Source: Imbricaverruca yamaguchii (Eukaryota > Arthropoda > Thecostraca > Neoverrucidae). Taken from it: a stretch of DNA of 64,000 nt. Below the pieces are notes generated by a model. It was not told the DNA's origin. It ran no database searches and was given only the letters and a program-made list of their open reading frames with translations. Within the stretch, counting starts at the first letter, position 1, and the number at the start of each line of letters is the position of its first letter. Where the stretch lies: contig JAOTOL010001565.1 of the NCBI GenBank assembly GCA_034440575.1, positions 372,001 through 436,000 on the forward strand, read 5' to 3'. This document shows positions 4,721 to 58,690 of this stretch, one piece after another. Both the position numbers and the translations under genes were made by a program.

Positions 4721-5040
4721 TAGGGACAAAACTATTGAAATGCATGCTGACTACGGCTATCGTCAGTCACACTTTACACCTCTGTTGCCATAAATAGGGA
4801 CAAAACTATCCATATGCATGCTGATCGCGGCTATTGGCGGTTGGTTGGTTAGTTATTGGTTTTACGACACAGCGGCCGTTAAATCATGTCGCGTCGCCAA
4901 TCTCTCACGCCGATTGGTCGCGGACGAAGAGTAGCGACAGGTGAGACTCGAACCTTCAACCTTTCGACTGTGAGACGAGCAACTTACCCCTAGACTGCTC
5001 GTCCCCGGCTATTGGCAGGCAGACTTCACAGATGTGCTGC
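4721..5040. repeat. 74-bp tandem duplication split by a SINE
   Basis: The block beginning TAGGGACAAAACTAT at about 4721 is repeated at about 4793. Both share ATGCATGCTGA and CGGCTAT. The second unit is interrupted at 4839-5005 by a family B SINE and resumes afterwards (GGCAGACTTCACAGATGTG against CGTCAGTCACACTTTACACC). The duplication is therefore older than the SINE insertion. Confidence 0.7.
4828..5016 (-). mobile_element. tRNA-derived SINE, family B, copy 1, with target-site duplication
   Basis: The body 4839-5005 is flanked by a perfect 11-bp direct duplication CGGCTATTGGC (4828-4838 and 5006-5016), which shows retroposition. On the minus strand the head reads as a tRNA-like polymerase III promoter: A-box-like TAGTCTAGGGGTAAG and B box GGTTCGAGTCTC. 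The 3' tail is AATAACTAACCAACCAACC. A second copy lies at 31256-31396. Confidence 0.9.
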
Positions 5041-12560: not shown

Positions 12561-13197
12561 CCTATTTTCTTTTGATCAAGTTGAAGTAGGTTTTTCACCT
12601 CCCTGGAAACTTAGTTACCTGAATAAGCTTGTAAAAACTTTTATGACACTTTTATGGACATTTATGAAAGTCTGAGATTTCTATGACACACATCAATATT
12701 GATTTGTGGGAAGCCTATCAATATTTATTCTGGCAGAACCTTGGCCAGTCAAAATTGTTCCACTGTTACTAGGTAATGGTGGGTTGCATACCTAAAACCT
12801 TATGGATGCCATGTTGATGTTGATGTGTAAAACCTGGAGATGTTAGAATGTATAAACACTATGGCCAAGATTGTGTGCCAAGCTTGCTGTATGAATTTGG
12901 TCTCCATTGATGTTTTGCCAAATATTGATACCATGAGACATATTTTTGGGTATTGTAGGTATACCTTGATATTCTGTTTGTAAATACACATCTGAGTTCT
13001 ATGGAACAGGATTATTTATGATTTGTGAATTGGCAAGCAACTTTTGCTAGCAAATCACATCACAATAACTCAACTGTAGTAAAATTAGCCACATTTAATT
13101 GCATACCAGTTGCTTTGGCTTCCATTATAGTCAGTAGGATTTCCTTAAGCCAAAGCTTTGTTGATCTGCTTATGCTGCATTGCTTCAATGCTTAGTT

Positions 13198-13251
13198 AGT
13201 TAGTTATTTGGGTATTAGGGTGCATCAACTGCAGTGGTTATACAGTGCCCA
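13198..13251 (-). mobile_element. ultrashort hairpin-tail retroposon, copy with perfect TSD
   Basis: A 54-nt body is bracketed by a perfect 14-bp direct duplication TTCAATGCTTAGTT (13184-13197 and 13252-13265). In sense orientation (minus strand) the body starts TGGGCACTG, continues through complementary AACC and GGTT segments to GCACCC, then ends in a CAAATAACTAACT tail. The duplication defines both ends, so the element appears complete at about 54 nt. Its A residues at two CpG positions fit decay of a GGGCGC/GCGCCC stem. Confidence 0.8.
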
Positions 13252-14094
13252 TTCAATGCTTAGTTCTTCATGAAATAGAGTAGAACATACCACTTTCTGA
13301 GCACTCAATTGATATCCTAGAAGTTTTTATATCTGCTCCTGGATGCATGCTTATGAAGTCTTTATGCCTCCTTTCTAACAGTATCTCATTTATAAGTATC
13401 ATGTCTGTACTCTTGATAAAGAATGGTGGTAAATGAACCTTTTGCAATGCAATTTCAGGTAAATGGATTACCTATGATGTGATATGGAATACCATGCCAG
13501 TTTATAGCATAGGTATTATTATCTCTATCCCAAACATAGTTCTTTCAAAGTTATGAATCTGAAAACCAATGATGAAGGTACAGTCATGAGTACACCTGAG
13601 TGAAAGGCATCAAGTGCATTTTAAATGACACTATTTGCATTGCAAATGTTGACATCCTACTATCCTCATTTCAGCATCTCACACCTAGTGAAAAACCATA
13701 ATTTTAGCACTGCCTTGCTTTCTTACTCAAGGTAGATGTTGAGTGCAGCATGCCATTTCAATGTGTATATAAATGGAGCATATGTGATGTGTAATATAAA
13801 CACTTCTATATCATAAGAAATGTAACATTTGCACACCTAATGCAGCATGCTATTTGCCTTCTTGCTCTGTGTTTTTACATGTGTTCAGATCCAAATTATC
13901 TTGCAGGAATAATTGCAGTGAAATGAAATGATGCTGGAGCATGCATTCTTGACATGGTGAGATGTCATTATAGGGGCCTTGTGTGGGTTTGTACAAGACT
14001 AGACAAGACATGAATTTGAAGATGTATTACATATTGCCCCATATCAATGTTATTCGGCACATTTTCTTACTGACCATGTTTTGTCCTCTTTCAG

Positions 14095-17100: not shown

Positions 17101-18534
17101 TAATTATCTGCAGAGGTGACGTGTTCTAAACCACTATAATCGATGCAGCTCGTTGGTTTTGCCGATAGCCAGTCGCTATCACTAGCAAGTCTGAAGGCTA
17201 AATACAGTTTCAATTAGCAGTCAAGAATCAATAAAACCGAGCTGCATGGCCAACGCAGTCCATGCGTCACGAAGCCCAAATCAATCGAACGGCCAGGCCG
17301 ACCGTCCCTATTCTGATGCTTTATGGCAGGCTTATAACCTTTTAACCACATACTATAGAATTGCACAGTAGGAATGTAAATGGAGCTCTGAAGGTTGGTG
17401 CACTTTAGTTTACGAGGCTCCGTGTCTTATTCTTGCCCCCACATTAGTGATAAACGTACAGTAAACGCAGCGATGGATATGAACATAGCACTTCGTGTTG
17501 TAATCCCGGTTCCTATGTGGTGGTATGCAACATGCTGAGATGGGACTTACTGGAACTGTTTCAAGCATCTATTGTGCAATATTAGGTAGTCTTTACTTTA
17601 ACTGTGGTTGCTGCATTATGTGGGAAGTGTACAAGGCGAACTAAACATACCGGTAACCATTGCAGAGCCCTACAAAATTGTAAGAGGTGCAATTGACTAT
17701 TCCGCGCTCGCGATCTGTTCAACGACCTCTCCTGTTTATTGCATATTCATCACCTTACACTGTATGTGTCATGGGTGTGCTGGATCACTGCATCTATACT
17801 ATAAAACATGCCACTTCCCACCACTTCTGTTTTTTTTTATTTTGTTTCTGAATGTTCCTGATGACAGAAATCGAAGTATGCACAGAAGCTAGTCATTGGT
17901 TTATGAATTCCTTTGATTGAATGTACATTGGCACTATGACAAACACTGACCTCTACACATCGCATGCTTCATGTTTGAGCTGTAAACAAAGCTTAAAATA
18001 CCGATTGTGGCGGATTTTCGCAGATGTACCGTTACTACGTCCCCGTTTTATGACGTATGCCATATTTCATGAACTTGGAGTACTGAGTAGGCATGGTACA
18101 TCGCCGTCTTCAAACTGTAGACGTGTATCGAACGGGGCGTTTCACATTTAAGCCCAAGTAAACACGATTACAATCATTTGTGGTGAGTTATCATTTGTGT
18201 GTGGAATACAAATATTGTATGTTGGGCCGTATTGTTCATGGTTCAGAGTATTGTAAAGATAGGTGTTATATTAACGAGCGACGACTTCCCTGCTCCGTTT
18301 CTTTAGTAATGATTTCCGGGAAATATCGTTACTTGTATGATGATTGCAAATCCACGCATGCGATGCATTATCGTTCGACATTTCTGCTACTATTATTTTA
18401 TCACGTGAGGACACACCATGTTATATCTTTGTTAGGGCACTGATTCCCAGTGCTTATGAGCGTGTGATGCATCCTAATACAAATATATGTTGTTCGGCCA
18501 TGCATACATGCAGCATCAGGGCATGCACTGACCT

Positions 18535-18610
<76 letters not shown>

Positions 18611-21600
18611 AGGTATCAGCAGACGCCCGGTGTATGGCAATGACGCAGCAGCAATGCCAGCCATATGCTGACGTGCTCAACGTGCCAACGTTTGTTGTTT
18701 ATTGGGTTGTTCTCGACGTACTTTATGCACGACCACGGCTAATGGCGCCGCGGAATTGGGAAATGTCCCGAGTGGTGTGAGTGTCTAATCCGAGACCTTT
18801 GGTACCCAGAGCTTAACACCTTTACCACTCGGCCATCCCCGACCCACCATACCAACGTGGCCAATTGACGCAGCCGTACTTCTACTGTGGTGTCGAATTG
18901 TGTGTCGCAAGCGCTGGACGTTTGTGAACATTAGTATGGTGTGTCGAACACATTGGCACTGTTAAAACAGTTTGAATGATATTGAACAGAGTTAGAGCGA
19001 GGCGCAATATGACCAGATCGTCGAAGCACCCGAAAGCTCAAATAACTAACGAGGAAGAGCGAGTTCTTCAAAGGTCGGTAGTTTTGTTATCGACATGACT
19101 ACTGGTTTGGCCGTGAGCCATAGTGGGGTCTCATCCTCTAGTCTGACACGTTCCACGGTCACGTTGTGTACACTGACAAATCACACTGTCGCGTCCTGTA
19201 CAGTATGTCACGTCAGACTATCATGTTCTGCACACTGACATGTCCTGCTGTCACGTCCTACTGTTACGTTTTGCACGCTGTCATGTCCTGCTGTTACGTC
19301 CTACTGTTACGTTCTGCACACTGTCATGTCCTGCTGTCAAGTCCTACTGTTACGTTCTGCACACTGCCATGTCCTGCTGTACGTCCTGCTGCCACGCCTA
19401 CTGTTACGTTCTGACACTGTCATGTCCTGCTGACACGTCCTACTGTTACGTTCTGCACACTGTCATGTCCTGCTGCACGTCCTACTGTTACGTTCTGACA
19501 CTGTCATGTCCTGCTGACGTCCTGCTGCCACGTCCTACTGTTACTTCTGCACACTGTCTGTCCTGCTGACACGTCCTACTGTTACGTTCTGCACACTGTC
19601 ATGTCCTGCTGTCATGTCCTGCCTACACGTCCTACTGTTACATTCTGCACACTGTCATGTCCTGCTGACACGTCCTGCTGTCACGTCCTACTGTTACGTT
19701 TTGCACGCTGTCATGTCCTGCTGTTACGTCCTACTGTTACGTTCTGCACACTGTCATGTCCTGCTGTCAAGTCCTACTGTTACGTTCTGCACACTGCCAT
19801 GTCCTGCTGTCACGTCCTGCTGCCACGTCCTACTGTTACGTTCTGCACACTGTCATGTCCTGCTGACACGTCCTACTGTTACGTTCTGCACACTGTCATG
19901 TCCTGCTGACACGTCCTACTGTTACGTTCTGCACACTGTCATGTCCTGCTGACACGTCCTACTGTTACGTTCTGCACACTGTCATGTCCTGCTGACACGT
20001 CCTACTGTTACGTTCTGCACACTGTCATGTCCTGCTGTCATGTCCTGCCTACACGTCCTACTGTTACATTCTGCACACTGTCATGTCCTGCTGACACGTC
20101 CTGCTGTCACGTCCTGCTGCCACGTCCTACTGTTACGTTCTGCACACTGTCATGTCCTGCTGTCATGTCCTGCCTACACGTCCTACTGTTACATTCTGCA
20201 CACTGCCATGTCCTGCTGCCACGTCCTACTGTTACGTTCTGCACACTGTCATGTCCTGCTGTCATGTCCTGCCTACACGTCGTAATGTTACGTTCTGCAC
20301 ACTGCCATGTCCTGCTGACACGTCCTACTGTTACGTTATGCACACTGTCATGTCCTGCTGACACGTCCTACTGTCACTTCCTGCACACTGTCATGTCCTG
20401 CTGACGCGTCCTACTGTCACTTGCTACACTGTCATGACCCGCTGATGCGTCTCATTGTCACGTTATATACATTGACCTCGACATGTCTCACTATCGCGTC
20501 GCGTCCTGTACACTGTCACGTCCCACTATCACGTCCTGTGGAACGTCGCACTCCACTGGCATGTCCCACTGACACCATGTGCAGTGTCACCATGTAACTG
20601 TCCCACTGTCACGTCCATTATGGTTGGGAGGGTTATAAGGAACAATACTACAACTACACTACACTAACAAGAACAACACAATATTACAACTGCAATACTA
20701 CAATGCCGCCGAGCCGATCAATATCATTGCCCACTTGACGCACGAGCATGAGTTGATCCTTCCGCTCCCAAAGATCGGTCGAACTTTTTTATGAAAAACG
20801 AGCGACTGAGATGGTTTGTAGCAGAGCTGAGCAACAACATTGGACATGTTGTGTTGGTTTCCAGGTCGGTACGATAGCGCCCAAGAAGTTTATCGCTCGC
20901 CTGCGAAAAGAGAAAGAAGAGTTCGACAACTACATGCAGCAAGATGCGCACGAGTTTCTCAACTTCCTCATCAATAATATCAACGAAATCATACTTGGTA
21001 GGTCGGTGACCATGCGCATGCCCGAGCGTGAGGAACAGATATTAACGTGGCGGGTCAGCGCCGTGGGCTGTTCATCAAAATAGAGACAGGTATCTCTGTG
21101 TGATTCCATTCTGCTTCGCTCTTACTTCCGTGACAGTAATGAGATGTTGACGCAGGTCGATATGGTAACTGATGATATGTTAGCTCTCGTGTGGAGGAAT
21201 AGTGAGCGTGCAGCGTCTTTATTAGTCTGTCTGTCGGTTGTCGGCAAGTATTTGTTCTGGTACAGGAGTAGACGTGTATTTACTGTGATGAATTCAAGCA
21301 TGGTGATTGCTAAAAATTGATGAATTGCTGTAAAATTAGTAGAAAATGTACTTGTGCATTGCTACGTGAACTTAATGTTGACTGATCAGCGCCATTATCA
21401 CTTTCATGAGACAGCACTGTGTTATTGTTACATTTTGAGTTCATACAATGTTCCTATCTCCGACACGGATGTTTCCATGATATATTTTCTTGATTGGCGA
21501 ATGTGAAATTGTATCCAAGGAATGATTCAATGGGTACATTTGGTGAATGATGCTAACATTTTAGAAGGGTAGCTCAGTGGGTCAGTACGGATTATAGCAC

Positions 21601-24600: not shown

Positions 24601-27600
24601 CCCTTCCCCTGACGAAATTCTGGTATCAACGCCAGATTAGAATAGCTATAATTTTACCGTGCTCAAAACTGAATGAAGTTCTGCCACCTATTGAGTGTTC
24701 TATTAAGTTAAGCTTGTATTCACCTGTTAAAATAGCTGATGCTAAAATCCATCAGCCAACTGCTTGTTGGTAAAGGTGAAGATTATTTGCTAGCTTGGCT
24801 GGGGTAGCGAACAAAATCCTGACTTTGTGTCCGCAGGGCCTTCCTGTATTCGAACGGTCTGTCACCTCATACTATTTTACTGTAATATCCCACAGCAAAA
24901 CTAATGAAAGGCAACAGAATGCCCACTGTCCAAACATCAACAACTCTGGAATATAGTTTGGGTCTCCATGAATATTGTGGATTTTTTCAGCTCTCGTCGT
25001 TTGGAAGCTCTTGAAACTGCGTCGCTTTCCATCGTTTTTATTTTGGTGTTGTTTGTTTTGTTTTGTTTTTGATATTTTGCTTCAATTTCTGAACATTCTG
25101 ATCTGATGCATGTGTGGTTGCATGCAGCTTATGTCTTGGGGCCTGTAATTTAGACAAACTGAGTTCATCTCACTGGCAAAATGCCTTGTTGTCAGGCTTA
25201 CTGTTATGTGCATGCCTACCGACGCACGAGTGACTTATCGACGAGTAGCCGATCTGGTGGACCAGGGGCGCATGCCTTACTCAGTCTCTCCGCCGCTGAC
25301 AAGCCGCCGTTGTGTGTCGGAGGTGCACAGGTAGTCCAGGGCCCGCCGTGGTGACGCCTGGCACGTTTGAGTGGTTAGCATGGTGTTGTATGGCGACGGC
25401 ACGGTGAAGCAGGTGTGTGGTACGAGACACGTTGGAGCGGTGTGTATCTGTCAGCTACTACTTTGACGGTACTTGTCTTGTCATGCGGTGTTTTGAGCTG
25501 ATGTCTCGCATCAGTGCCTGCTGAGGTGTTATATCTTTGGAGGTTTGGTGGTCACTAGGTGTCCTGGCTCCACCATGGAAGATGTGCGTTTAGCACATCT
25601 TCCATGGTGGGCTTTCTCTCGCCCAAGGTTAAGTTGCTCTGACCCCCACCATCTTGTCCAGTTGACCATTTATTCTGTTTCAATATTCCCTTACCACCAT
25701 CATTTTCACTGTATCCATCCCACTTGAAAGAACACTTCAAGGTAGTCCACGTATCACCAATCCCACCTCCACGAGACGTTCATCATCGCTGTCTCGGCTC
25801 CTCGACCTATCTTTGCTGTTTTGTTTATGATGTGTGAGCTCATGACCAAGTACAGTCGACGCTCCCGCAAGTCCCAATAACCAATCAATCGATCCCAATC
25901 ACCTCGCTGCCCGGTCGTTGCAGAAGCGGATGCGCGTCAAAAAGTCGCCGACAATCTTGGCGCTGCACTTGAAGCGGTTCAAGTACATGGAGCAGTACAA
26001 CCGGCACATCAAGGTGTCGCACCGGGTGGTGTTCCCCCTGGAGCTGCGGCTGTTCAATGTGGTACGTGCCGGCTGGGCTGCGGCGGCCCGATGAGGGGTG
26101 AGGGCTGAGCTGTGGCGGCCCGATGAGGGGTGAGGGCTGGGCTGCGGCGGCCCGATGAGGGGTGAGGGCTGAGCTGCGGCGGCACGATGAGGGGTGAGGG
26201 CTGAGCTGTGGCGGCCCGATGAGGGGTGAGGGCTGGGCTGTGGCGGCCCGATGAGGGGTGAGGGCTGGGCTGCGGCGGCACGATGAGGGGTGAGGGCTGA
26301 GCTGTGGCGGCCCGATGAGGGGTGAGGGCTGGGCTGCGGCGGCCCGATGAGGGGTGAGGGCTGGGCTGCGGCGGCCCGATGAGGGGTGAGGGCTGAGCTG
26401 TGGCGGCCCGATGAGGGGTGAGGGCTGAGCTGTGGCGGCCCGATGAGGGGTGAGGGCTGGGCTGCGGCGGCACGATGAGGGGTGAGGTCTGCGCTGCGGC
26501 GGCCCTATGAGGTGTGAGGGCTGGACTGCGGTGGCCTGATGAGGGGTGGGGCTGGGCTGTGGTGGCCCGTATCCGCTCGCCCTGGCTCCGGTGTGCGTGC
26601 TACTATCCACTGGTAGACTGCGGGTGTGGCTTCTGCTCGTCTTTGCTGTCACACGCGAGCAGTATGAGGTCTCATTCAGGCAGGGGTGCTGTTTTGTGTA
26701 CTTTTGGTAAGGTCCAAGCCCCACCAATATGATGTTGGGAACTACCAAACGTTCTTGAGCCCTACCAATGTTTATAAAGTTATTACGTAATTCATCTTCT
26801 TATCTAACTAGCTCGTCACTTCACATGTCACAATTTCAGAATCGTGGACATAATTTGGCTGGGACATACAGCAGTTTAGTCGTTACTTTATTTGTATGTG
26901 TACGTGGTGTCGTAATGGGCCATACTTAAGCGGTCGTAATATGTTACCGAAGCAAAAAAACAGGAATTTTGAATATTTGAGGAAACAAAATATCGAGAAG
27001 ACAATATATATGTTTCGAATTATGAAAAAGTAGCTGGAATACGTGAAGATGTTAGCTTTTACGCGCCTCTCCCCTTATGAAGTCCTAGCTACGCTCACTA
27101 GTCAAAACCTGGGCCCCATGCATTGGTTTCGTGAAGTACCACACCCATTCATTCAAGAGTTGTGTGAAAGCACGCGTCACTTGTGTTTGCTTTGCTTTCC
27201 GGTGGTATTTTCTGTATACGCCACTCTCGGGAGCCCACTAATCGCCTACCGGAAATATTACCTCTAGGATGTACGCTCCATCTGGTCACTCGGCGTGGCG
27301 TATCGCCCGGATTGATCGCGTGATGCACCTATGCCATCCTTGTGATGTGACCTGAGCTAACCTCTGGTCTAACTTCGAGGTGTTATTGGACCTTGTGCGG
27401 GGCATAATCCACACGATGTCTCTGAACCATCTGTACAACCAGATCGTGCCGGACATTCCTCCCCCTTCATCTGATTGCTTGAGTCTGGACCGTCGGTATG
27501 ACATGTCCTGTCCCGACCTGCCCCCAGTCGGATGACGTCGTGACCCCGGACCGTCTGTATGACCTGGTGGCGGTCGTCGTCCACTGCGGGTCCGGACCAA

Positions 27601-29815
27601 ACCGCGGTCACTACATCTCCATTGTGAAATCGCACGGCTTCTGGCTCCTCTTCGATGATGATGTGGTGGACGTGAGTATTCCCCCAATGACTGTCGTGGG
27701 AAGCAAGGTACATCAACCAGTCGCATCGAAGGCGGCATTAATCGCAGGCTGAGTTACGACACGGTCTGTGTAGTACTTCGAAAGTGAAGTTGGGTGCTGA
27801 AGCCCTAGCATTCCGTTGCTGGTTTCCGCCAATTTTCTTCGTTCCGTGACTCGTCATAGTGGACCATACGTCAGTATGGTATTGAATTGATTTTGCATCG
27901 CTGTGGCAGTTCGACATGTGGCTACTGGGCGGCTGCTTGGTGACATCGCTGGAAGCCGTTCAGCTGTTAATGTGCCTGAACCAGTTCTTGTCGTCTGGGC
28001 CACGTTACATAGAATGCGGTTTGTAAAGAAGCTTGTTGTGAAACCCGTTTAGCTGCCTGGCAGTGAGTGCAGGTTCGGCCTCTGTTTATTCGAAGCTTTG
28101 CCTCTGCCTTTGTCTTTTACGCAGTGATCTAAGACTGATGGAATCGGCTGGCTTTTTGGCATGCTACAAAAAGTTTATCTGACGTTCGTGGCATATTCTA
28201 CTTGTTTATTCTTGCATCGTGCAAGGCGCGCTTATTGAACGTTGCGGTATTTTGAAAGGTTTGGAGCAATTTAACTGCGCATTCGCCACAGATGCTCACA
28301 TATTATGATGACTGTATGTAGTATAGCGTATAATGGCTGTCCTTCGTGTACTGACTGTCGTGGAAATCAGCAATTCGTTCATTACATCATCTTGACCATA
28401 AGCATGTGGCCATGGGCAGGGCATAGCATATGGCCATGACCTTAGCACTTAGCACCTAAACATTTTGCGATCTTGAGAAATAGCGATCTTATATGAATCC
28501 TGCAAACAGTTTGGTATCCCCCTTTACCAGTGGAATGACCAAGCAACCAATTAATTCAACCATGATTGAGTTGTACAGGTAACGGTCGTTACAAATTGTG
28601 CATCCTTTGGCGGCATTGTCGTTTTCTTGAGACAAAATTGAACGGGTACACTAAATTCATGTAACCCGAATACGGTTGGACTCTTTTCAACCTGAATCTG
28701 GAGGCAGGTTCCGACCCCGCCCCCTAAGATCTCGGCATATATTTGGCCGATTTCAAAACGGAATAACTCAACCGAGTTCTACTGTTCTAGTCGAAAGTTT
28801 TAGAAGGCCAAACTCGTTTAATTTTGTGAATAGCGAAGTCAGAAAGAAATAATTGAGGACATTTAACGGAACCATTCAGGGCTCTATTTAGCTGTATAAT
28901 TTAAGAGTGCAATTTATATCCACTGGCTCTGGATATATGCTCGAAATTGATATGTATTTGTGGCAATACAGTTCTTATGCTCAAACCCGTGCAGATTTAT
29001 TAACATGCTGCCCAATTATGGCCCCTGGATACGCCCATGGTGTCGTATACAACTTGTGCTATCATCTCTGAAGCATAATTTGAGCAAGGATATGCCAGGT
29101 GAATCATATTCGAATGGCAACGTATGATTCCGCTTTGGTAAAACCTTCCACTTGGCCATTTTCTTGCTTCCCGATGGATCCGCCTCTGATAAGATTAGGT
29201 TCCAAATAAGCATTTCCGTAGATTAGTAAGGTTTTTAGCAAGTAGCAAACCATTAGTTATGGGCGCTAAATGACCACACCTGGTCGATGCGCCATAAAAC
29301 TCAAATAACCAACCAACCAAGATTAGCAAGGTAGTAACACATGTGCACCTACAAAGTTGTACAAAACAATATTTGAGCTGTTTGGTTATTTTGGCCAATG
29401 GGCGCGAATGACCGGTTCTGGTCGAGGCGCCCTAAAGCCCACATAACTAACTTATGTTTGCTAAAATTGTTAACTCTGAACACCATGGGTCGCGTCTCAA
29501 AATCCGACCCAGACTACTGTCATCTGCTCAGCATGACATGGTCTCATATTATTACATTGTATGTCATTGACTATGCTGGTGCATTATATGCCTTAGTTTG
29601 AGTAGTGATTTCGTTCGCTATCTACCGAGGCATGCAATTTCTGACATTGCTGTTGAATTTTCAAACGGATCTTTTTACCTGATGCCATCCCTGCTATATT
29701 CTGGCAGAAAATCGACCCATCCACGATAGAAGACTTTTTCGGCCTGACCTCAGACATCCAGAAGTCGTCAGAGACGGGCTACATCCTCTTCTACCAGTCG
29801 AGAGACGCCGCCTGA
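14095..29815 (+). CDS. USP46: USP12/USP46-type ubiquitin carboxyl-terminal hydrolase (whole gene)
   Basis: Joined exons 14144-14146, 15332-15412, 16582-16746, 20865-20997, 22587-22732, 23692-23847, 25924-26061, 27528-27671 and 29708-29815 give an open frame of 357 codons plus TGA, close to the family's 360-370. All junctions are GT-AG and the reading phases agree. This is a cysteine protease that removes ubiquitin; known relatives are activated by the WD-repeat partners WDR48/UAF1 and WDR20. Catalytic Cys33 lies in GNTCYSNS, His302 in NRGHYISIV, and the acidic partner is in the Asp cluster 317-319. Zinc ligands are Cys171/174 and Cys218/221. Invertebrates usually have one gene for vertebrate USP12 and USP46, so the symbol stands for the pair. 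Introns are minisatellite-rich. No canonical polyadenylation signal was found in the first kilobase downstream. Confidence 0.95.
15332..15412 (+). CDS. USP46: USP12/46 exon, residues 2-28
   Basis: 81 nt, phase 0 at both ends, acceptor TCTACAG and donor GTGAGT. Encodes the segment containing [10 protein letters not shown] and NEHYFGLVN, which precedes the catalytic Cys box. Confidence 0.93.
16582..16746 (+). CDS. USP46: USP12/46 exon with catalytic cysteine, residues 29-83
   Basis: 165 nt, acceptor CTTCCAG and donor GTAGGC, both junctions in phase 0. Begins F-G-N-T-C-Y-S-N, with the nucleophilic cysteine at codon 16594-16596, and ends IATQKKK. Confidence 0.95.
16747..18535. other. USP intron, first part, no gene seen
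   Basis: Intronic sequence between catalytic-Cys exon and the (TA)n tract. Some short frames are open but none is splice-flanked with family similarity. Confidence 0.5.
18536..18610. repeat. (TA)n microsatellite
   Basis: About 75 bp of TA with one TG interruption, inside the USP intron. Confidence 0.95.
18691..18846 (-). mobile_element. tRNA-derived SINE, family A, copy 1
   Basis: On the minus strand it starts GGTCGGGGATGGCCGAGTGG, a clear tRNA Ser/Leu-like A box, then continues through a decayed B-box region to GCGCCATTAGCCGTG and a tail containing CCAATAAACAACAAA. It matches 39799-39983 along its length. The tail contains the AACC/AATAAAC motif common to SINE families here. Confidence 0.85.
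19002..19050 (+). mobile_element. ultrashort hairpin-tail retroposon with imperfect TSD
   Basis: The 49-nt body starts GCGCAATATGACC and ends CTCAAATAACTAAC. It is flanked by GAGTTAGAGCGAG (18989-19001) and GAGGAAGAGCGAG (19051-19063), 11 of 13 bases alike. The left duplication may overlap the expected GGG of the element. Confidence 0.7.
19160..20600. repeat. 43-bp minisatellite with higher-order repeat
   Basis: The unit contains TCATGTCCTGCTGACACGTC followed by CTACTGTTACGTTCTGCACA; spacing between identical units at 19861 and 19904 is 43 bp. A block beginning near 19243, with the variant GTTTTGCACGCTG, recurs near 19674, about 430 bp or ten units later. Another variant, GCCTACACGTC, recurs at about 19621, 20047, 20171 and 20270. 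Units decay towards both ends, the right one near 20400-20600. The Cys/His/Leu frames across it are artefacts. It ends about 260 bp before the next USP exon. Confidence 0.95.
20865..20997 (+). CDS. USP46: USP12/46 exon, residues 84-127 and first base of 128
   Basis: 133 nt, acceptor GTTTCCAG and donor GTAGGT, leaves in phase 1. Contains the family signature [13 protein letters not shown] and ends at the helix EIIL. Confidence 0.95.
20998..22229. other. USP intron, no gene seen
   Basis: Moderately AT-rich intron sequence without recognised repeats or exons until the array at 22230. Confidence 0.5.
22230..22520. repeat. 24-bp minisatellite just upstream of a USP exon
   Basis: Four consecutive units of GTGTGACGGTGCAGTATTTG plus GGCG-type ends begin at 22356, 22380, 22404 and 22428. 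They are flanked by longer diverged copies containing CTGTGGTGTGTATG. The array ends about 65-130 bp before the acceptor at 22586. Confidence 0.9.
22587..22732 (+). CDS. USP46: USP12/46 exon with first zinc-ligand pair, residues 128-176
   Basis: 146 nt, acceptor ATCCACAG, donor GTACGG. It completes the split Ala128 codon and leaves in phase 0. The first 25 residues are a Ser/Gly/Thr-rich variable linker, as in relatives. Then come TWVHEIFQG and the CxxC of RCLNCET (Cys171, Cys174). Confidence 0.95.
22908..23170 (+). mobile_element. tRNA-derived SINE, family C
   Basis: Contains a good B box GGTTCGATTCCCA near 22951 preceded by an A-box-like GTGGCAAAGCGGGGCG at the expected distance. A 3' tail ATTAACTAACCAAACAC follows about 200 bp later. 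The tail motif is the one carried by families A and B. Only one copy is visible in the window and I see no clear target duplication. Confidence 0.6.
23171..23691. other. USP intron, no gene seen
   Basis: Sequence between the SINE and the next exon; no supported features. Confidence 0.45.
23692..23847 (+). CDS. USP46: USP12/46 exon with second zinc-ligand pair, residues 177-228
   Basis: 156 nt, acceptor CGCCAG and donor GTAGGG, phase 0 at both ends. Encodes [20 protein letters not shown] and the second CxxC in FKCDVCC (Cys218, Cys221), ending YQEAQ. Confidence 0.95.
23848..25569. other. USP intron, no gene seen
   Basis: Mostly AT-rich intron. No splice-flanked coding similarity on either strand. 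Confidence 0.45.
25570..25610. repeat. perfect hairpin, 18-bp arms, 5-nt loop
   Basis: Arm 25570-25587 (CCACCATGGAAGATGTGC) is exactly complementary to 25593-25610, with loop GTTTA. The absence of any mismatch suggests a recent origin. It lies in the USP intron 300 bp before an exon. Confidence 0.9.
25924..26061 (+). CDS. USP46: USP12/46 exon, residues 229-274
   Basis: 138 nt, acceptor GTTGCAG, donor GTACGT, phase 0 at both ends. Encodes [20 protein letters not shown], the hydrophobic LALHLKRF core of the palm, and [11 protein letters not shown]. The downstream intron begins directly with minisatellite sequence. Confidence 0.95.
26062..26560. repeat. 32-bp minisatellite beginning at the splice donor
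   Basis: About 15 units of CGGCCCGATGAGGGGTGAGG plus GCTGGGCTG or GCTGAGCTG, period 32 bp (identical positions at 26091 and 26123). The first units start within about 15 bp of the GTACGT donor. Three unit variants (GCTGCGG, GCTGTGG, GGCACG) alternate. Pro/His/Ser-rich frames on the minus strand are artefacts. Confidence 0.95.
26561..27527. other. USP intron, no gene seen
   Basis: Single-copy looking intron between the 32-bp array and the His-box exon. Confidence 0.45.
27528..27671 (+). CDS. USP46: USP12/46 exon with catalytic histidine and aspartate, residues 275-322
   Basis: 144 nt, acceptor GCCCCCAG, donor GTGAGT, phase 0. Contains [20 protein letters not shown], the His box with His302, and FWLLFDDD with the catalytic acid at 317-319. 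Confidence 0.96.
27672..29259. other. last USP intron, no gene seen
   Basis: No supported features until the two hairpin-tail elements at 29260 and 29399. Confidence 0.45.
29260..29320 (+). mobile_element. ultrashort hairpin-tail retroposon
   Basis: Starts TGGGCGCTAAATGACC, then TGGTCGATGCGCC and the tail CAAATAACCAACCAACCAA. GGGCGC pairs with GCGCC(A), and GACC pairs with GGTC. Flanks ATTAGTTA and ATTAGCAA are a weak possible target duplication. Confidence 0.7.
29399..29451 (+). mobile_element. ultrashort hairpin-tail retroposon
   Basis: Starts TGGGCGCGAATGACC, then TGGTCGAGGCGCCC and the tail CACATAACTAAC, 53 nt in all. Both stems, GGGCGC/GCGCCC and GACC/GGTC, are intact. Flanks TTATTTTGGCCAA and TTATGTTTGCTAA agree at 10 of 13 positions, consistent with an old target duplication. 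Confidence 0.7.
29708..29815 (+). CDS. USP46: USP12/46 terminal exon, residues 323-357 and stop
   Basis: 108 nt including TGA at 29813-29815, acceptor CTGGCAG. Encodes [18 protein letters not shown] and the family's carboxyl end [10 protein letters not shown] plus two alanines. Confidence 0.95.
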
Positions 29816-31238: not shown

Positions 31239-31413
31239 TGGCTGAGGCAGTTGGGGACGAGTAGTCTAGGGGTAAGTTGCTCGTCTCACCCGTCGCTACT
31301 CTTCGCCCGCGACCAATCGGCGTGAGAGATTGGCGACGCTACATGACCCGACGGTCGAACCCAACGGTCAATGTGTCGCAAAACCAATAACCAACCTGGC
31401 TGAGGCAGTTGGG
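31239..31413 (+). mobile_element. tRNA-derived SINE, family B, copy 2, with perfect 17-bp TSD
   Basis: Body about 31256-31396 is bracketed by TGGCTGAGGCAGTTGGG (31239-31255 and 31397-31413). It matches copy 1 (minus strand) from GACGAGTAGTCTAGGGGTAAG to the AATAACCAACC tail. It lacks the roughly 29-nt segment holding the B box, removed exactly between two CTCAC repeats. That deletion may have come after insertion, since loss of the B box should silence polymerase III transcription. Confidence 0.9.
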
Positions 31414-34787: not shown

Positions 34788-36106
34788 ACCATGACACCCA
34801 CACCAGCGCCTATCGCCCGCTCAACACAAGGCGCCTATCTATTAGTCACCAATACTGAGCCTCAGAACACCATCACGCGAGAGTTTTCCTTCACCCTCGC
34901 ACAGACACTGCACCACATACTGAACTCGCCACACTTCACTATCAACAGACACACCACTCACATCATCGTGTGCACGTCATCGCACAGAGCGGCGCTGACA
35001 AACTCTAGCAGACACACAGACACTGAACAACCAGCGCTGTTCATTCACACTACACCGCGCATTTAACGCCTGCCGGCGATACATTTTCGCTTCAGAGCTG
35101 GAATACCTACCACTGGCCAATATCCCTGCACTGTTTGACGCCACAGCCCTCCTCGGCGCCACAGCCACAGTAGACAATATTAGACGGGAGGAAAGACTTG
35201 CATGCAGCATCTTAGTACTGGCATTCAACTCACTACAGCTGCCATCATACATACACAAACACGACGAACCGTGCTAGGTAAGTCATAACCTACATCTACC
35301 ACTTCGGTGCCGCCTCTGTCTGCGTTAAAATGGACGCTAAATGACCAAACCTGGTCGACGCGCCCTAAAATGCAAATAACCAACCAACCATGGCCATGGT
35401 GAACGCGCATGCGAGTTCGCCAGAGCTACGCTGCAGCCAGTGTGCTGAACACCACACTGCATCCGGCTGCACATCATCCGAAAGGAAATGTACGGCCTGT
35501 GATGGGCGGTATGTGGCAGCTTACAGCGCGCCACATACGACAACACGCCAGCACGCAGCACCTCCTCCTCCACCCACATCCATTCCAGCATCAGCACCCA
35601 CCCACCCTACCGTCCCTCCTCCCTCCTCAACGCTCCACCGATACTCGACGTTGCCCATCCCCCTCACTCCTTCCAACGCCACCCCATCACGGACACGGCC
35701 TCCTCCTACACCCGCCTCACCGCGGACCCAGCCTCCTTTCACATCCACCCCACCGTCCACCTCCACTCCTACCTCGGACACGACCTCCTCCCAGACGATG
35801 CACAATTCGAACAGCACACCAAAACTGTCGACAGTACTTTGCGTAAAAATTCAGTAGTTTCACCCCTATTGCAGAACCTGGGACCTGATGAAACGCCACT
35901 ACCGGTTCCCTTTCTCCAGCTGACGATGAAAGGACAGCACATTACTGATCCACAACATGTAGACCACTTTAAAGTACACTACGTCTAACACGGCGTCTCT
36001 TGCAACAACACATACGACACCACCGTAGCAAACTCTCTGGACGCCCTTGCCACCACTGCAAATTTAAACTCTAACAACACTAAAGACTACAACCAACCAT
36101 TGATTA
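34788..36106 (+). pseudogene. Jockey-type LINE, 5' part (ORF1 and pre-RT linker), broken
   Basis: Frames resembling LINE ORF1 run from 34791. A zinc-knuckle-like Cys/His cluster follows (residues RCSQCAEHHTASGC near 35420-35465, then a CTAC pair), with a Pro/Thr/Ser-rich tail to about 35830. The part from about 35870 to 36106 resembles the linker that precedes the reverse transcriptase in ORF2. There is no room for the endonuclease domain, so an internal deletion is likely. Frameshifts and stops are present, and a hairpin-tail element sits within ORF1 at 35331. The RT part continues at 38111 after an inserted transposon. Confidence 0.6.
35331..35390 (+). mobile_element. ultrashort hairpin-tail retroposon inside LINE ORF1
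   Basis: Starts TGGACGCTAAATGACC, then TGGTCGACGCGCCC and the tail GCAAATAACCAACCAACCA, 60 nt. It lies between two coding-like parts of the LINE ORF1, which fits insertion into the LINE. Target duplication not evident. Confidence 0.7.
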
Positions 36107-38110
36107 CACTGGCCTGCGTTTCAAAACTTTTTTTTCTCAAAAGGTCTCAAGTTTCTGAGCTGTTCTAATGCAAGTTTCGTGTGCTGAATCCGAAAATACT
36201 ATGCATTTTTTTCTCGATTAGCTGAAGATTTCACACTACGTCAAAGATAACAACTCACACACTGATGTATCAGTATGCATACTGCAGTATGATATATCAG
36301 TAGCGGAGAGAAGTGAAAAGTGTGAAACTTGGTGATCAGGACAAGCCGTTTGTCCCTCATATCTGCTGCAAGTAATGTATGGAAGGCCTACGAGCCTGGA
36401 AGAACAAGACCCGGAAATCCATGCCCTTCGGCATTCCCATGGTGTGGCGGGAGGGAAAGGATCATACCATCGACTGCTATTTTTGTATGACAGATCTGAA
36501 ATGAGTAAATCGAAAGAAACAGAAGCATGTAAAATATCCGGATGTGCCATCAGCCACCAAGCCAGTCCCCCATGGTCCAGATGTCCCCATCCCGATGTCG
36601 ACATCCAGTCATCTTCCGATTCTAGTGGGGATGAAATGGACGTAGACGCGTCTGGTGCATATGAACCGACTGAGAACGATCGACCGGTACCGTTGAACCA
36701 AGCTGAGCTCAATGACCTAACGAGGGACCTGAACTTGTCCAAGGAATCTGCTCAGCTGCTGGTTCACGGCTCCGTGAGAAACGTTCGCTGGTGCATGAAA
36801 CGACATTCTGTTGATAACGGAATTGCGAAAAAGAATTCAGAGAATACTTTACCTTCAACAAAGAACATTCTCTAGTCTACTGCAACAACATCGCGGGCCT
36901 AGTAGAAGCAATGGGTGCACAGTACAACCCGGCAGAATGGAGGCTGTTCATAGACTCCTCGAGTAGGAGCCCGAAGGCAATTCTTCTGAACAGCAATAAG
37001 TTCGCGTCGATTCCTGTTGGACACTCCGTACAACTGAGGGCAACGCATAACAGCAAGGAACTTTTGTTGTCTGCTTTGAACTACAAAGAACATGGTTGGC
37101 TGATCTGTATTGACCTCAAGGTAGTAGGTCTCGTCCTTGGGCTGCGGGGCGGCTACACGAAATATCCATGTCTTATATGCCTCTGGGACAGTCGGGCCGA
37201 CAAACAGCACTATGTACAACGCGACTGGCCATCCAGGAATGCACTTGAACCAGGCTCCCACAGCGTGCAGTCACGCCCCTTGGTTGAACCACAGAAAATC
37301 CTACTTCCACCACTCAATATCAAACTCGGTTTGATGAAAATTTTGTGAAAGCACTGGATAAAGAACGACGAGGATTTACATTTTTGTGATAACAATGTCC
37401 TCATGTGAGCAGAGAGAGCTGAAGGCTGGTGTATTCGACGGTCCTCAGATAAGAGAGCTCATGAAGGATACTCGATTCGAAGAATGTCTGGAACAGTTTG
37501 AGCTCTCTGCATGGCTGGCCTTGAAGTCAATCATCACCAATATCCTGGGTAATCACAGAAGTGCGGAATACGTGAAGGTCGTCGATGAGTTGACGGACAG
37601 TTTTCAGCAACTTGGTGCTCGAATGTCGGTAAAAATGCACTTCCTTAGGTGCCATCTAGATTATTTCCCAGATAACTGTGGAGATTACAGTGAAGAGCAG
37701 GGAGAACGCTTCCACAAAGACATACGGGTGATGGAAGAGCGTTACCAAGGTCGGTGGGATGTGAACTTTCTGGCGGGCTGTTGTTGGTGCCTGAAGAGGG
37801 ATATCCCATCCGCTCAACACAGTCGGAAATCCATGAAAATGTAATTATTCCGCAGTAGTGTGCACTGTTGGGATGCGTTCTGAATACACTTATGGTCCAT
37901 ATGTTTGGAGTTTAAACCTTTATTTATGCTTCTGTCGGATTCACTAGTAAACTAGTCAGAGCAATGTTTTGGTTCATATGAGTGAAATAATATATTTTAG
38001 AAAATCGAGCTAATCAAGCAAAACGGATGCCATTTTCCGAATCAGCATGAAAAAAACTGACCTAAAAACAACTGAGACACCCTTGACCTTATAAATCACG
38101 CAGACCAGTG
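36107..38110 (+). mobile_element. DNA transposon, 2.0 kb, copy 1, with TTA duplication
   Basis: Ends are inverted: CACTGGCCTGCGT at 36107 and the complement of CACTGGTCTGCGT ending at 38110. Similarity continues imperfectly for about 110 bp inward, with landmarks such as GCTGAWTCSGAAAATRSCAT and GATTAGCT. TTA lies directly outside both ends (36104-36106 and 38111-38113), giving a 3-bp target duplication. The CACTG terminus and 3-bp duplication suggest the CACTA/EnSpm group, although a TTA target is also typical of PIF/Harbinger. It is inserted in a LINE. Confidence 0.8.
36375..37844 (+). pseudogene. decayed transposon protein, copy 1
   Basis: Three successive frames (36375-36875, 36911-37348, 37386-37844) belong to one ancestral protein. 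An acidic Ser/Asp-rich amino region is followed by blocks with NPAEWRLFIDSS, SIPVGHSVQLR and CLICLWDS, and then EEQGERFHKDI and MEERYQGRWDVN. Frameshifts separate the blocks. I remember these motifs as a multicopy, transposon-associated family in arthropods, but I cannot name the domain with certainty. The carrier's inverted ends support a transposase or accessory role. Confidence 0.7.
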
Positions 38111-38545
38111 TTAGTCACGAACTACACTTTCGCCTCAGCAAGTGTGGAAACACGTCTGTTGGGCCGGACGACATTCATTACCAGTTTTTCGAACATCTCA
38201 GCAAAATTATCTATCGTACCTACTAGAGGACATTCACGACCTGTACCAAAGTGACGCCTTTCCTGTCTCATGGTGGGAAGGTGTAGTCGTCCCGCTGCCA
38301 AAGCCACATAAGGATCTTTCCGCCACCAAATGGCTTAGGCCTGTCTCACTTACTAACTGCCATAGAAAGCTGGTCTGGTGCATAGTCAACACACGATTGC
38401 GACATTTTTCTAGGACGCAAAGACCTCCACGAATTTCAGTGCGGCTTCCAGCATCAAAAATCAACCACAGACAATCTTATGACTGTGATTGCTTAGTTGC
38501 TTCCGTACTAACCTCACTGACACCCTGCATGGAAGCATGCTCCTA
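38111..38545 (+). pseudogene. Jockey-type LINE, reverse transcriptase fragment
   Basis: Encodes, with at least one frameshift near 38222, the amino part of a non-LTR reverse transcriptase: NTSVGPDDIHYQFFEHLSK, then WWEGVVVPLPKPHKD and LRPVSLTNCHRKL. It continues the LINE interrupted at 36106. It stops well before the catalytic YADD region, so the copy is dead. Confidence 0.8.
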
Positions 38546-38592
38546 CTAACCCACCACTGTTCAACTAACCAACTAACTAACCAACTAACACG
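38546..38592 (+). repeat. AACTAACC tail-like tract
   Basis: Repeated CAACTAACCAACTAAC directly follows the LINE fragment. The tract resembles the 3' tails of SINE families A-C and of the hairpin-tail elements. Confidence 0.6.

Positions 38593-50097: not shown

Positions 50098-58690
<8,593 letters not shown>

What the first reader, a model, noticed from the sequence alone, without database searches (positions are those of the whole stretch)
13184..13265. Ultrashort (about 54 nt) retroposon with its own target-site duplications, seven copies in the window
Seven short elements (13198-13251 minus; 19002-19050, 29260-29320, 29399-29451, 35331-35390, 54415-54467 and 54939-54994 plus) share one design. 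The 5' part is TGGGCGC-n-ATGACC, then TGGTCGA-n-GCGCCC, which can pair as GGGCGC/GCGCCC and GACC/GGTC. A CAAATAACCAACCAACC or CAAATAACTAAC tail follows. The 13198 copy is bracketed by a perfect 14-bp duplication (TTCAATGCTTAGTT). The 19002 copy is bracketed by an 11/13-bp duplication, and 29399 by a 10/13-bp one. The duplications lie directly at the element ends, so the whole mobile unit would be about 50-60 nt. That is far below ordinary SINEs, which are usually over 80 nt even when tRNA-only, and it has no obvious A box. How it is transcribed is unclear; it may be copied from a structured RNA or from a LINE 3' end.
Basis: partly seen in the sequence, partly recalled or inferred. Interest (0 to 1): 0.88.

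Follow-up and report, generated by a model that had tools for sequence, protein, structure and literature searches.

The report
54-nt mobile LINE tail hairpin
The tail end of a family of jumping genes (LINEs), a hairpin only about 54 letters long, is scattered through this animal genome as its own insertion with a fixed start point, which makes it an unusually small retrotransposed unit and a natural test of what a LINE needs in an RNA it copies.

Summary
All seven copies are real. Three have duplications flush with their ends: 13198, 19002 and 29399 (P 0.00025, 0.0015, 0.01). Copy 29260 is different: it carries 27 LINE-derived bases, and its duplication lies beyond them.

The genome holds many such copies. 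A core pattern has 1,656 exact matches (reversed-pattern control 0). Of 82 sampled copies (8 LINE-bearing ones set aside), 54 have an exact flanking duplication of 9 bp or more, against 3 of 409 swapped flanks. The best-sampled subfamily has 575 exact hairpins; only 40 (7%) carry the next four bases of the parent.

The parent is an RT + RNase H LINE whose 3' end is this hairpin plus a short repeat tail. Three LINE families, with different loops and tails, yield the same unit starting at the hairpin's 5' edge. So these are LINE 3'-tail mini-retroposons, neither tRNA-type SINEs nor randomly truncated LINEs. Why the 5' end is fixed is open; I favour a short RNA template ending at the hairpin edge over a block during reverse transcription. 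Ten open-access literature searches listed no description.

The parts
13198..13251 (-). mini-retroposon (loop ACTGC type, AACT tail), full length
   Evidence: 39 other copies at 91-98% identity among the 40 hits scored of 412 candidates
13184..13197 (-). 3' copy of the 14-bp target-site duplication of the 13198 element
   Evidence: 14/14 identical to 13252-13265
13252..13265 (-). 5' copy of the 14-bp target-site duplication of the 13198 element
19002..19050 (+). mini-retroposon; duplication 18989-19001 / 19051-19063, 11 of 13
   Evidence: P 0.0015
29260..29320 (+). LINE 3' hairpin and AACC tail; part of a LINE copy truncated 27 nt above the hairpin, not a mini
29233..29259 (+). 27 nt, ending in GTTA, that resemble the LINE 3' UTR in front of the hairpin
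   Evidence: by eye against L086, L088, L126
29220..29232 (+). 5' duplication (12/13) of the 29260 LINE copy; partner at 29320-29332
   Evidence: P about 0.0125
29399..29451 (+). mini-retroposon; duplication 29386-29398 / 29452-29464, 10 of 13
   Evidence: P 0.01
35331..35390 (+). mini-retroposon, AACC tail; no clear duplication
54415..54467 (+). mini-retroposon; only a weak, gapped duplication by eye (not significant)
54939..54994 (+). mini-retroposon, AACC tail; duplication 9 of 13 (P 0.05)
   Evidence: (E 2e-5)
31256..31396 (+). SINE with tRNA-like head (by eye) whose 3' hairpin and tail match the same model (31333-31396); 17-bp duplication 31239-31255 / 31397-31413
4839..5005 (-). second copy of that SINE; 11-bp duplication 5006-5016 / 4828-4838

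Best explanation
Shown: the 54-nt elements are the extreme 3' end (hairpin plus short repeat tail) of RNase H-bearing LINEs, inserted as separate units with target duplications of mostly 10-17 bp, which is the mark of target-primed reverse transcription. Three LINE families, with different loops and tails, yield units that start at the same point: the 5' edge of the hairpin, immediately after a GTTA that the LINE families share. Inferred: the LINE enzyme recognises the 3' hairpin and tail, so any RNA ending in it can be copied. The usual template here is a short RNA whose 5' end lies at the hairpin edge, for example what is left after 5'-to-3' decay or cleavage of LINE mRNA is stopped by the folded hairpin or its bound protein. 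The enzyme copies that fragment to its end, sometimes adds a base or jumps to another RNA, and the cDNA is sealed in. The copies need no promoter and are probably dead on arrival.
For: LINE source: copies L094, L111, L127 and L130 share at least 480 upstream nt (95-99.6% identical). The ORF ends about 70 nt before the hairpin. Pfam finds RVT_1 5.3e-31 and RNase_H 1.9e-6 in L167. LINE coding remnants lie within 600 nt upstream of 12 of 27 copies preceded by GTTA, but of 2 of 150 others (one of the 2, L086, is a LINE with GTTG). TPRT: 54/82 and 23/39 exact duplications of 9 bp or more vs 3/409 and 2/191 swapped. Fixed end: of 103 copies with duplication score 9 or more (185 rows examined), 79 have 0-3 nt between duplication and hairpin (copies cut inside the hairpin also count as 0 there). 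40 of 575 exact hairpins carry GTTA. LINE as the template rather than an old SINE lineage: 26 of 45 minis are identical to the LINE over 48 nt; L077 and L151 both carry 7 LINE nt (TCTGTTA) before the hairpin. Template end at the hairpin edge: 20 of 103 have exactly 1 extra nt. The extra stretch in L037 (and its duplicate L038) is an exact copy of the element's own 5' arm; in L046 it is a 7-of-8 match, and in L128:561 its first nine bases match a related arm (the last two by eye). L115 looks like a SINE joined to the hairpin inside one duplication (by eye). Non-templated addition and template jumping are described for R2 RT (PMC8857657, passages).
Against: No RNA data: a 54-nt RNA was never seen. 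A block during reverse transcription of full-length LINE RNA would give the same DNA. The jump-like cases are few (three independent sites plus L115). L115 could be two insertions. Some copies end inside the hairpin (L100 +10, L139 +5 in the AxCCAT set; 6 of 54 exact cases overlap the hairpin by 4 nt or more) or above it (+7 twice, 46 nt in L070, 27 nt in window 29260). 82 of 185 rows have no duplication scoring 9 or more. In the mixed census only 15 of 56 have an exact duplication of at least 9 bp (null 5/425).
Confidence: 0.55

Rival explanations
1. The template is full-length LINE RNA, and reverse transcription itself stops at the hairpin's 5' edge: the bound protein or the refolding hairpin cDNA blocks further copying, so about nine in ten insertions end there.
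For: Two minis carry 7 LINE nt, and A, which is also the LINE's next base, is the commonest single extra base: 8 of 54 and 4 of 23 exact cases. GTTA in front of the hairpin recurs in different LINE families. In the AxCCAT family, similarity among LINE copies that pass the point runs on for about 0.66 kb to nearly 2 kb. The cDNA of the unit can fold back (-11.2 kcal/mol).
Against: A polymerase moving 3' to 5' would be expected to stall on entering the hairpin, on the 3' side or inside, not after passing it (reasoning, not tested). The own-arm extras in L037, L046 and L128:561 look like jumps from a template end. Microhomology at the joint is not prominent: 7 of 54 exact cases overlap the hairpin by 1-2 nt (no formal test).
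Confidence: 0.3
2. The minis are a self-standing SINE-like lineage: transcribed on their own from some copies and mobilised by the LINE.
For: They outnumber LINE-extended copies (535 against 40 exact hairpins of one subfamily), have one start and several subfamilies.
Against: No Rfam match at the window copies and no tRNA gene called in the window; no head or A box in the 54 nt by eye. In 45 AxCCAT minis the variants seen at least twice are mostly in the tail; the three outside it (columns 7, 18, 35) occur twice each. Loop and tail types follow those of the LINE families. Two minis carry LINE 3' UTR bases.
Confidence: 0.12
3. Chance similarity or a short tandem or palindromic motif, not a mobile unit.
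For: Short element, simple tail.
Against: 1,656 pattern matches against 0 reversed-pattern controls; duplications far above swapped flanks; covariation across hairpins.
Confidence: 0.01

Closest known systems
Stringent-type LINE 3' tail stem-loops (UnaL2, ZfL2-1, ZfL2-2) and the SINEs that borrow them
   Same: A LINE protein recognises a stem-loop at the RNA 3' tail, and SINEs share such tails (PMC4176376, passages read).
   Different: Here the tail hairpin alone, without any SINE head, is the inserted unit, with a fixed 5' end, in RNase H-bearing LINEs (L2-clade LINEs in that paper).
5'-truncated LINE copies
   Same: 3' end of a LINE inserted with target duplications by target-primed reverse transcription.
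   Different: Truncation points are normally spread out (recalled). Here most sampled copies start at one base, leaving about 54 nt; among 53 AxCCAT copies none was seen cut between 8 nt and about 0.66 kb above it. In other families such cuts do occur (27 nt in window 29260, 46 nt in L070).
SINEs with a tRNA-like head in the same genome (window 4839-5005 and 31256-31396)
   Same: Same hairpin design and AAC-rich tail at the 3' end, target duplications.
   Different: They carry a tRNA-like head and body (by eye); the minis have neither.
Tailless retropseudogenes of therian L1
   Same: Insertions from RNA pieces with defined break points and target duplications (PMC5322556, abstract and section list only).
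   Different: Those lack tails, come from many kinds of RNA and are mobilised by L1; here the tail is the kept part.

Membership tests
LINE 3'-end derived retroposon (TPRT product) | Sequence identical to the 3' end of an RT-bearing LINE in the same genome | tested here: met
   26 of 45 AxCCAT minis identical over 48 nt; LINE
LINE 3'-end derived retroposon (TPRT product) | Target-site duplications at the ends, above a flank-swap control | tested here: met
   54/82 and 23/39 vs 3/409 and 2/191
LINE 3'-end derived retroposon (TPRT product) | Empty site in a related copy or individual | tested here: inconclusive
   No allele or sister genome was searched. In L092 the insertion lies in a tandem repeat whose neighbouring unit lacks it, by eye only
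SINE | Pol III-type head (tRNA, 5S or 7SL) with internal promoter | tested here: not met
   No tRNA gene called in the window, no Rfam match at the window copies, no head or A box within the 54 nt by eye
SINE | LINE-derived 3' tail | tested here: met
SINE | Own transcript | not testable with these tools
   no RNA data
Ordinary 5'-truncated LINE copies | Scattered truncation points | tested here: not met
   79 of 103 duplication-bearing rows lie within 3 nt of one point; 40 of 575 carry the next 4 LINE bases. The LINE's own truncation spectrum was not obtained (search did not complete)
Stringent-type LINE tail recognition | Protein binding to the 3' stem-loop is needed for retrotransposition | not testable with these tools
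   needs a binding or retrotransposition assay
Stringent-type LINE tail recognition | Conserved stem-loop with compensatory changes | tested here: met
   24 hand-picked hairpins: 7 two-sided cells, 0 of 500 shuffles as high; 91% paired vs 34-45% when slid. Not met within the seven window copies alone

The most novel reading that the evidence does not exclude
A LINE 3' hairpin acts as a natural minimal mobile RNA: cells make discrete RNAs of about 54 nt from LINE messages (a decay- or cleavage-resistant 3' remnant), and these, rather than full messages or SINEs, are the LINE machinery's main substrate in this animal, seeding tens of thousands of ultrashort insertions.
Probability: 0.4. Interest if true: 0.85.

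Novelty: new variant of a known kind. Interest (0 to 1): 0.66.

Why it matters
It suggests, by counts in a genome, how small an RNA a tail-recognising LINE will mobilise: one hairpin and a short repeat tail. It raises a sharp question, why the 5' end is fixed at the hairpin edge across LINE families. That can be answered by RNA 5'-end sequencing and a TPRT assay. Such units are likely to be missed by repeat annotation because they are below usual length cut-offs (inference).

Tried and rejected
Tried without gain. IMG/VR scans for words of the element, the SINE and its tail found nothing (records of the window's own genome may be left out there). The one scan of prokaryote genomes gave 26 stretches with the 17-base word; the model's best match in them was E 0.052, so I take them as chance. 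A protein search with the RT-like ORF 38115-38549 had no hit at E 0.001, and Pfam found nothing in seven window ORFs. A self-cleaving ribozyme (hammerhead, HDV type) was considered and dropped by eye: the cores that I recall for these are not present. A Pol III A/B box was looked for by eye and not found. Self-primed fold-back of the cDNA would leave an inverted tail upstream, which I did not see among the extra bases. An alternative helix (columns 8-12 with 19-23 of A2) covaries too but forms fully in only 2 of 24 hairpins; left as a lead. In one search I wrote that structure three columns off; one search is the corrected one. A2 was hand-picked and its structure comes from the same family, which favours it. 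The organism was not identified (the named relatives of the TE protein are crustaceans and a moth). The LINE truncation spectrum could not be run: the search with L094:1091-1490 did not complete. My TSD callers differ between calls (local alignment in 24, 50, 58, 125; exact runs in 77, 103; runs with mismatches in 72; flush window in 126); counts are given with their call. Rows dropped or doubled: 10 of the 100 places listed were not fetched; one search used 90. One search set aside 8 LINE-bearing loci (82 left); L079, which later showed to have LINE coding sequence upstream, stayed among the 82. For variants one search left out the odd or cut AxCCAT copies L100, L134, L139, L158. The samples hold same-flank pairs (L074/L098, L075/L091, L089/L163, L120/L121; L037/L038, L051/L068) that were not removed from the counts. 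The census omits the targeted copies (except L089:1099, which is the targeted copy again); one search was given 97 of the loci then held. The 185 rows include LINE copies, SINE tails and that double. One search left out 1 of 185 rows for lack of upstream sequence, and its SINE label missed two SINE-like tails (L170:713, L097:387), which count among the 150.

Full report
What was checked first. The seven copies were read and aligned. A covariance model from them was run over the window without filters. It recovers the seven and adds 25833-25886. It also recognises the 3' tails of two SINEs with a tRNA-like head (31333-31396 and, weakly, 4847-4897), so the hairpin-plus-tail design is shared with SINEs of this genome. 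In a test that allows only repeats flush with the element, 13198, 19002 and 29399 have significant duplications, 54939 is borderline, and the others do not. For 29260 the duplication lies 27 nt upstream.

Genome. The window is 64 kb of an assembly of 767,457,503 bases. A search with the 13198 copy and its own flanks gave 412 candidates, of which 40 were scored; the 39 others are 91-98% identical over the aligned part, which is the element. Read with 600 nt on each side, their upstream flanks are unrelated next to the element, except for two same-flank pairs (L037/L038, L051/L068) and one pair sharing 48 nt (L048/L070). Two further short similarities, L036 with L070 and with L053, lie away from it. 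Duplication score 9 or more: 27 of 39, against 0.9% of swapped flanks. Exact runs of 9 or more: 23 of 39, against 2 of 191.

A pattern that fixes only part of the hairpin and leaves the loop free has 832 + 824 exact matches and none for the reversed control. I read 90 of the 100 places listed. The largest subfamily has loop AACCAT and a CACACA tail; others have AACC, AACT or ATC tails. Duplication score 9 or more: 66 of 90, against 1.6% of swapped flanks. With 8 LINE-bearing loci set aside, exact runs of 9 or more: 54 of 82, against 3 of 409; their lengths are 10-17 bp but for two of 23-24.

The parent LINE. Eight of the 90 copies share 200 nt or more of upstream sequence that reaches the hairpin or comes close to it (L094, L111, L127, L130; L146 with these at 69%; L086, L088, L126), leaving same-flank pairs aside. 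A ninth, L079, has LINE coding sequence upstream. Upstream of L094 an open frame with an RNase H domain (PF00075, E 3.7e-7) leads to an ORF end about 70 nt before the hairpin (that copy has a frame break). Longer stretches show similarity among copies ending at about 0.66 kb (L165) and 0.99 kb (L164) above the hairpin, with nearly 2 kb shared by L166 and L167. L167 carries RVT_1 (5.3e-31) and RNase_H (1.9e-6), and L164 RNase_H (1.3e-11). In these eight the four bases before the hairpin are GTTA, except GTTG in L086. Over all 184 usable rows, coding remnants of the LINE's end lie within 600 nt upstream of 12 of 27 GTTA copies, 2 of 150 others and 0 of 7 SINE tails. Downstream of the element such remnants occur in 5 rows, as expected of nested repeats.

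The fixed end. Of 53 AxCCAT copies, 4 are LINE copies, 2 carry seven LINE bases (TCTGTTA) before a clean duplication, 2 are cut 5 and 10 nt inside the hairpin, and 2 are odd (L134, L158). Of the remaining 43, the duplication called by the script puts the start within 3 nt of the hairpin edge in 33. In five more (L089, L163, L092, L101, L108), four of them in repeats, I place it within 2 nt by eye. The last five (L083, L116, L120, L121, L155) are 5-8 nt off or unclear. Genome-wide, 575 exact hairpins of this type exist and 40 carry GTTA in front, so 93% lack the LINE's next four bases. Among 103 of 185 rows with duplication score 9 or more, the gap between duplication and hairpin is 0 in 48, 1 in 20, 2 in 7, 3 in 4 (cuts inside the hairpin count as 0 there). 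The same edge is used in the AACC-tail family (L132, L156, L128, L153, L145) and in the AACT-tail family. For both of these, LINE-extended copies also exist (L086, L088, L126; L048 with a coding match).

Abundance. In 40 kb taken at round coordinates of ten large contigs, the model has 11 matches at E up to 1, ten of them at E below 0.002. Of these ten, three have exact duplications of 11-14 bp within 3 nt of the hairpin edge, three have GTTA in front (two of them with LINE coding remnants), two are SINE tails, and two are short or unclear. Three minis in 40 kb would be some 57,000 in the genome, with a Poisson range of roughly 12,000 to 170,000 (worked by hand), so this is an order of magnitude only. 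In the mixed census of 56 rows, which includes LINE copies, SINE tails, diverged copies and the window's own, 15 have exact duplications of 9 or more, against 5 of 425.

Structure. Across 24 hand-picked hairpins, helix 2-7/30-35 and helix 13-16/23-26 are 91% paired, and 7 cells have changes on both sides (0 of 500 shuffles as high; the number of pairs with such changes was reached by 29 of 500). Sliding the partners drops pairing to 34-45%. The unit folds at -19.8 kcal/mol. Within the seven window copies alone there is no such signal. A second possible helix also covaries in part and could mean an alternative fold.

How it works. That the insertions are TPRT products of LINE 3'-end RNA follows from identity with the LINE, duplications and the LINE-derived bases of L077 and L151. 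Recognition of the 3' stem-loop by the LINE protein is taken from other LINEs (PMC4176376, passages). What sets the 5' end is inferred. I prefer a template whose 5' end is at the hairpin edge for three reasons. A polymerase coming from the 3' side would stall before or inside the hairpin rather than just beyond it. Single extra bases are common. And the extra stretches in L037 (exact), L046 and L128:561 (close) resemble the element's own 5' arm, as if the enzyme had jumped at a template end; L115 looks like such a jump onto a SINE RNA. Non-templated addition and jumping by a LINE-type enzyme are described for R2 (PMC8857657, passages). A block by bound protein or by refolding is the main rival and explains the extra LINE bases well.

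Known or not. Ten full-text searches of the open-access library listed no account that I could recognise of a unit of this size made of a LINE tail hairpin alone. I saw only the listings, plus passages of three papers and the abstract and section list of one. Subscription journals are mostly absent there, so this is not proof of absence. It is not a SINE by the promoter criterion, and not ordinary LINE truncation by the scatter criterion. I file it as a new variant of LINE-mobilised retroposon.

Noticed in passing
window 36123-38003 and 52748-54394: Two diverged inverted copies (pieces 89-96% complementary) of one repeat carrying an ORF with 358 database relatives; named ones among the 120 listed are crustacean (Hirondellea, Petrolisthes) and a moth (Eumeta). 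The 54415 mini lies just outside the second copy.
   Followed up: partly
window 38115-38589: An ORF that looks to me like a piece of LINE reverse transcriptase (no Pfam or database hit), followed by an AACTAACC repeat without the hairpin.
   Followed up: partly
L115:429-1003: A SINE with tRNA-like head and a hairpin unit (CACC tail) lie head to tail inside one apparent 13/14 duplication, as if copied in one event (by eye).
   Followed up: partly
L037, L046, L128:561: Between duplication and element sits a partial copy of the element's own 5' arm (exact in L037, close in the other two), 8-12 nt.
   Followed up: partly
alignment A2, columns 8-12 with 19-23: A second, overlapping helix with two-sided changes, best formed in some 5-nt-loop hairpins; it cannot nest with the conserved inner helix, so it may be a switch or pseudoknot.
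   Followed up: partly
L166:904-2743: Four copies of the hairpin in two pairs about 1,267 nt apart, so probably part of a larger tandem repeat.
   Followed up: no
window 19206-20446, 25970-26647, 56664-57345: Minisatellites with units of about 43, 32 and 64 bp.
   Followed up: no
window about 40600 and 57490-57664: Short ORF pieces that resemble a thiolase and a pyruvate dehydrogenase beta exon (recognised from memory, not searched), so the window is probably genic animal DNA.
   Followed up: no
window 17237-17286: A weak further match to the hairpin model (E 0.17), possibly an old copy.
   Followed up: no
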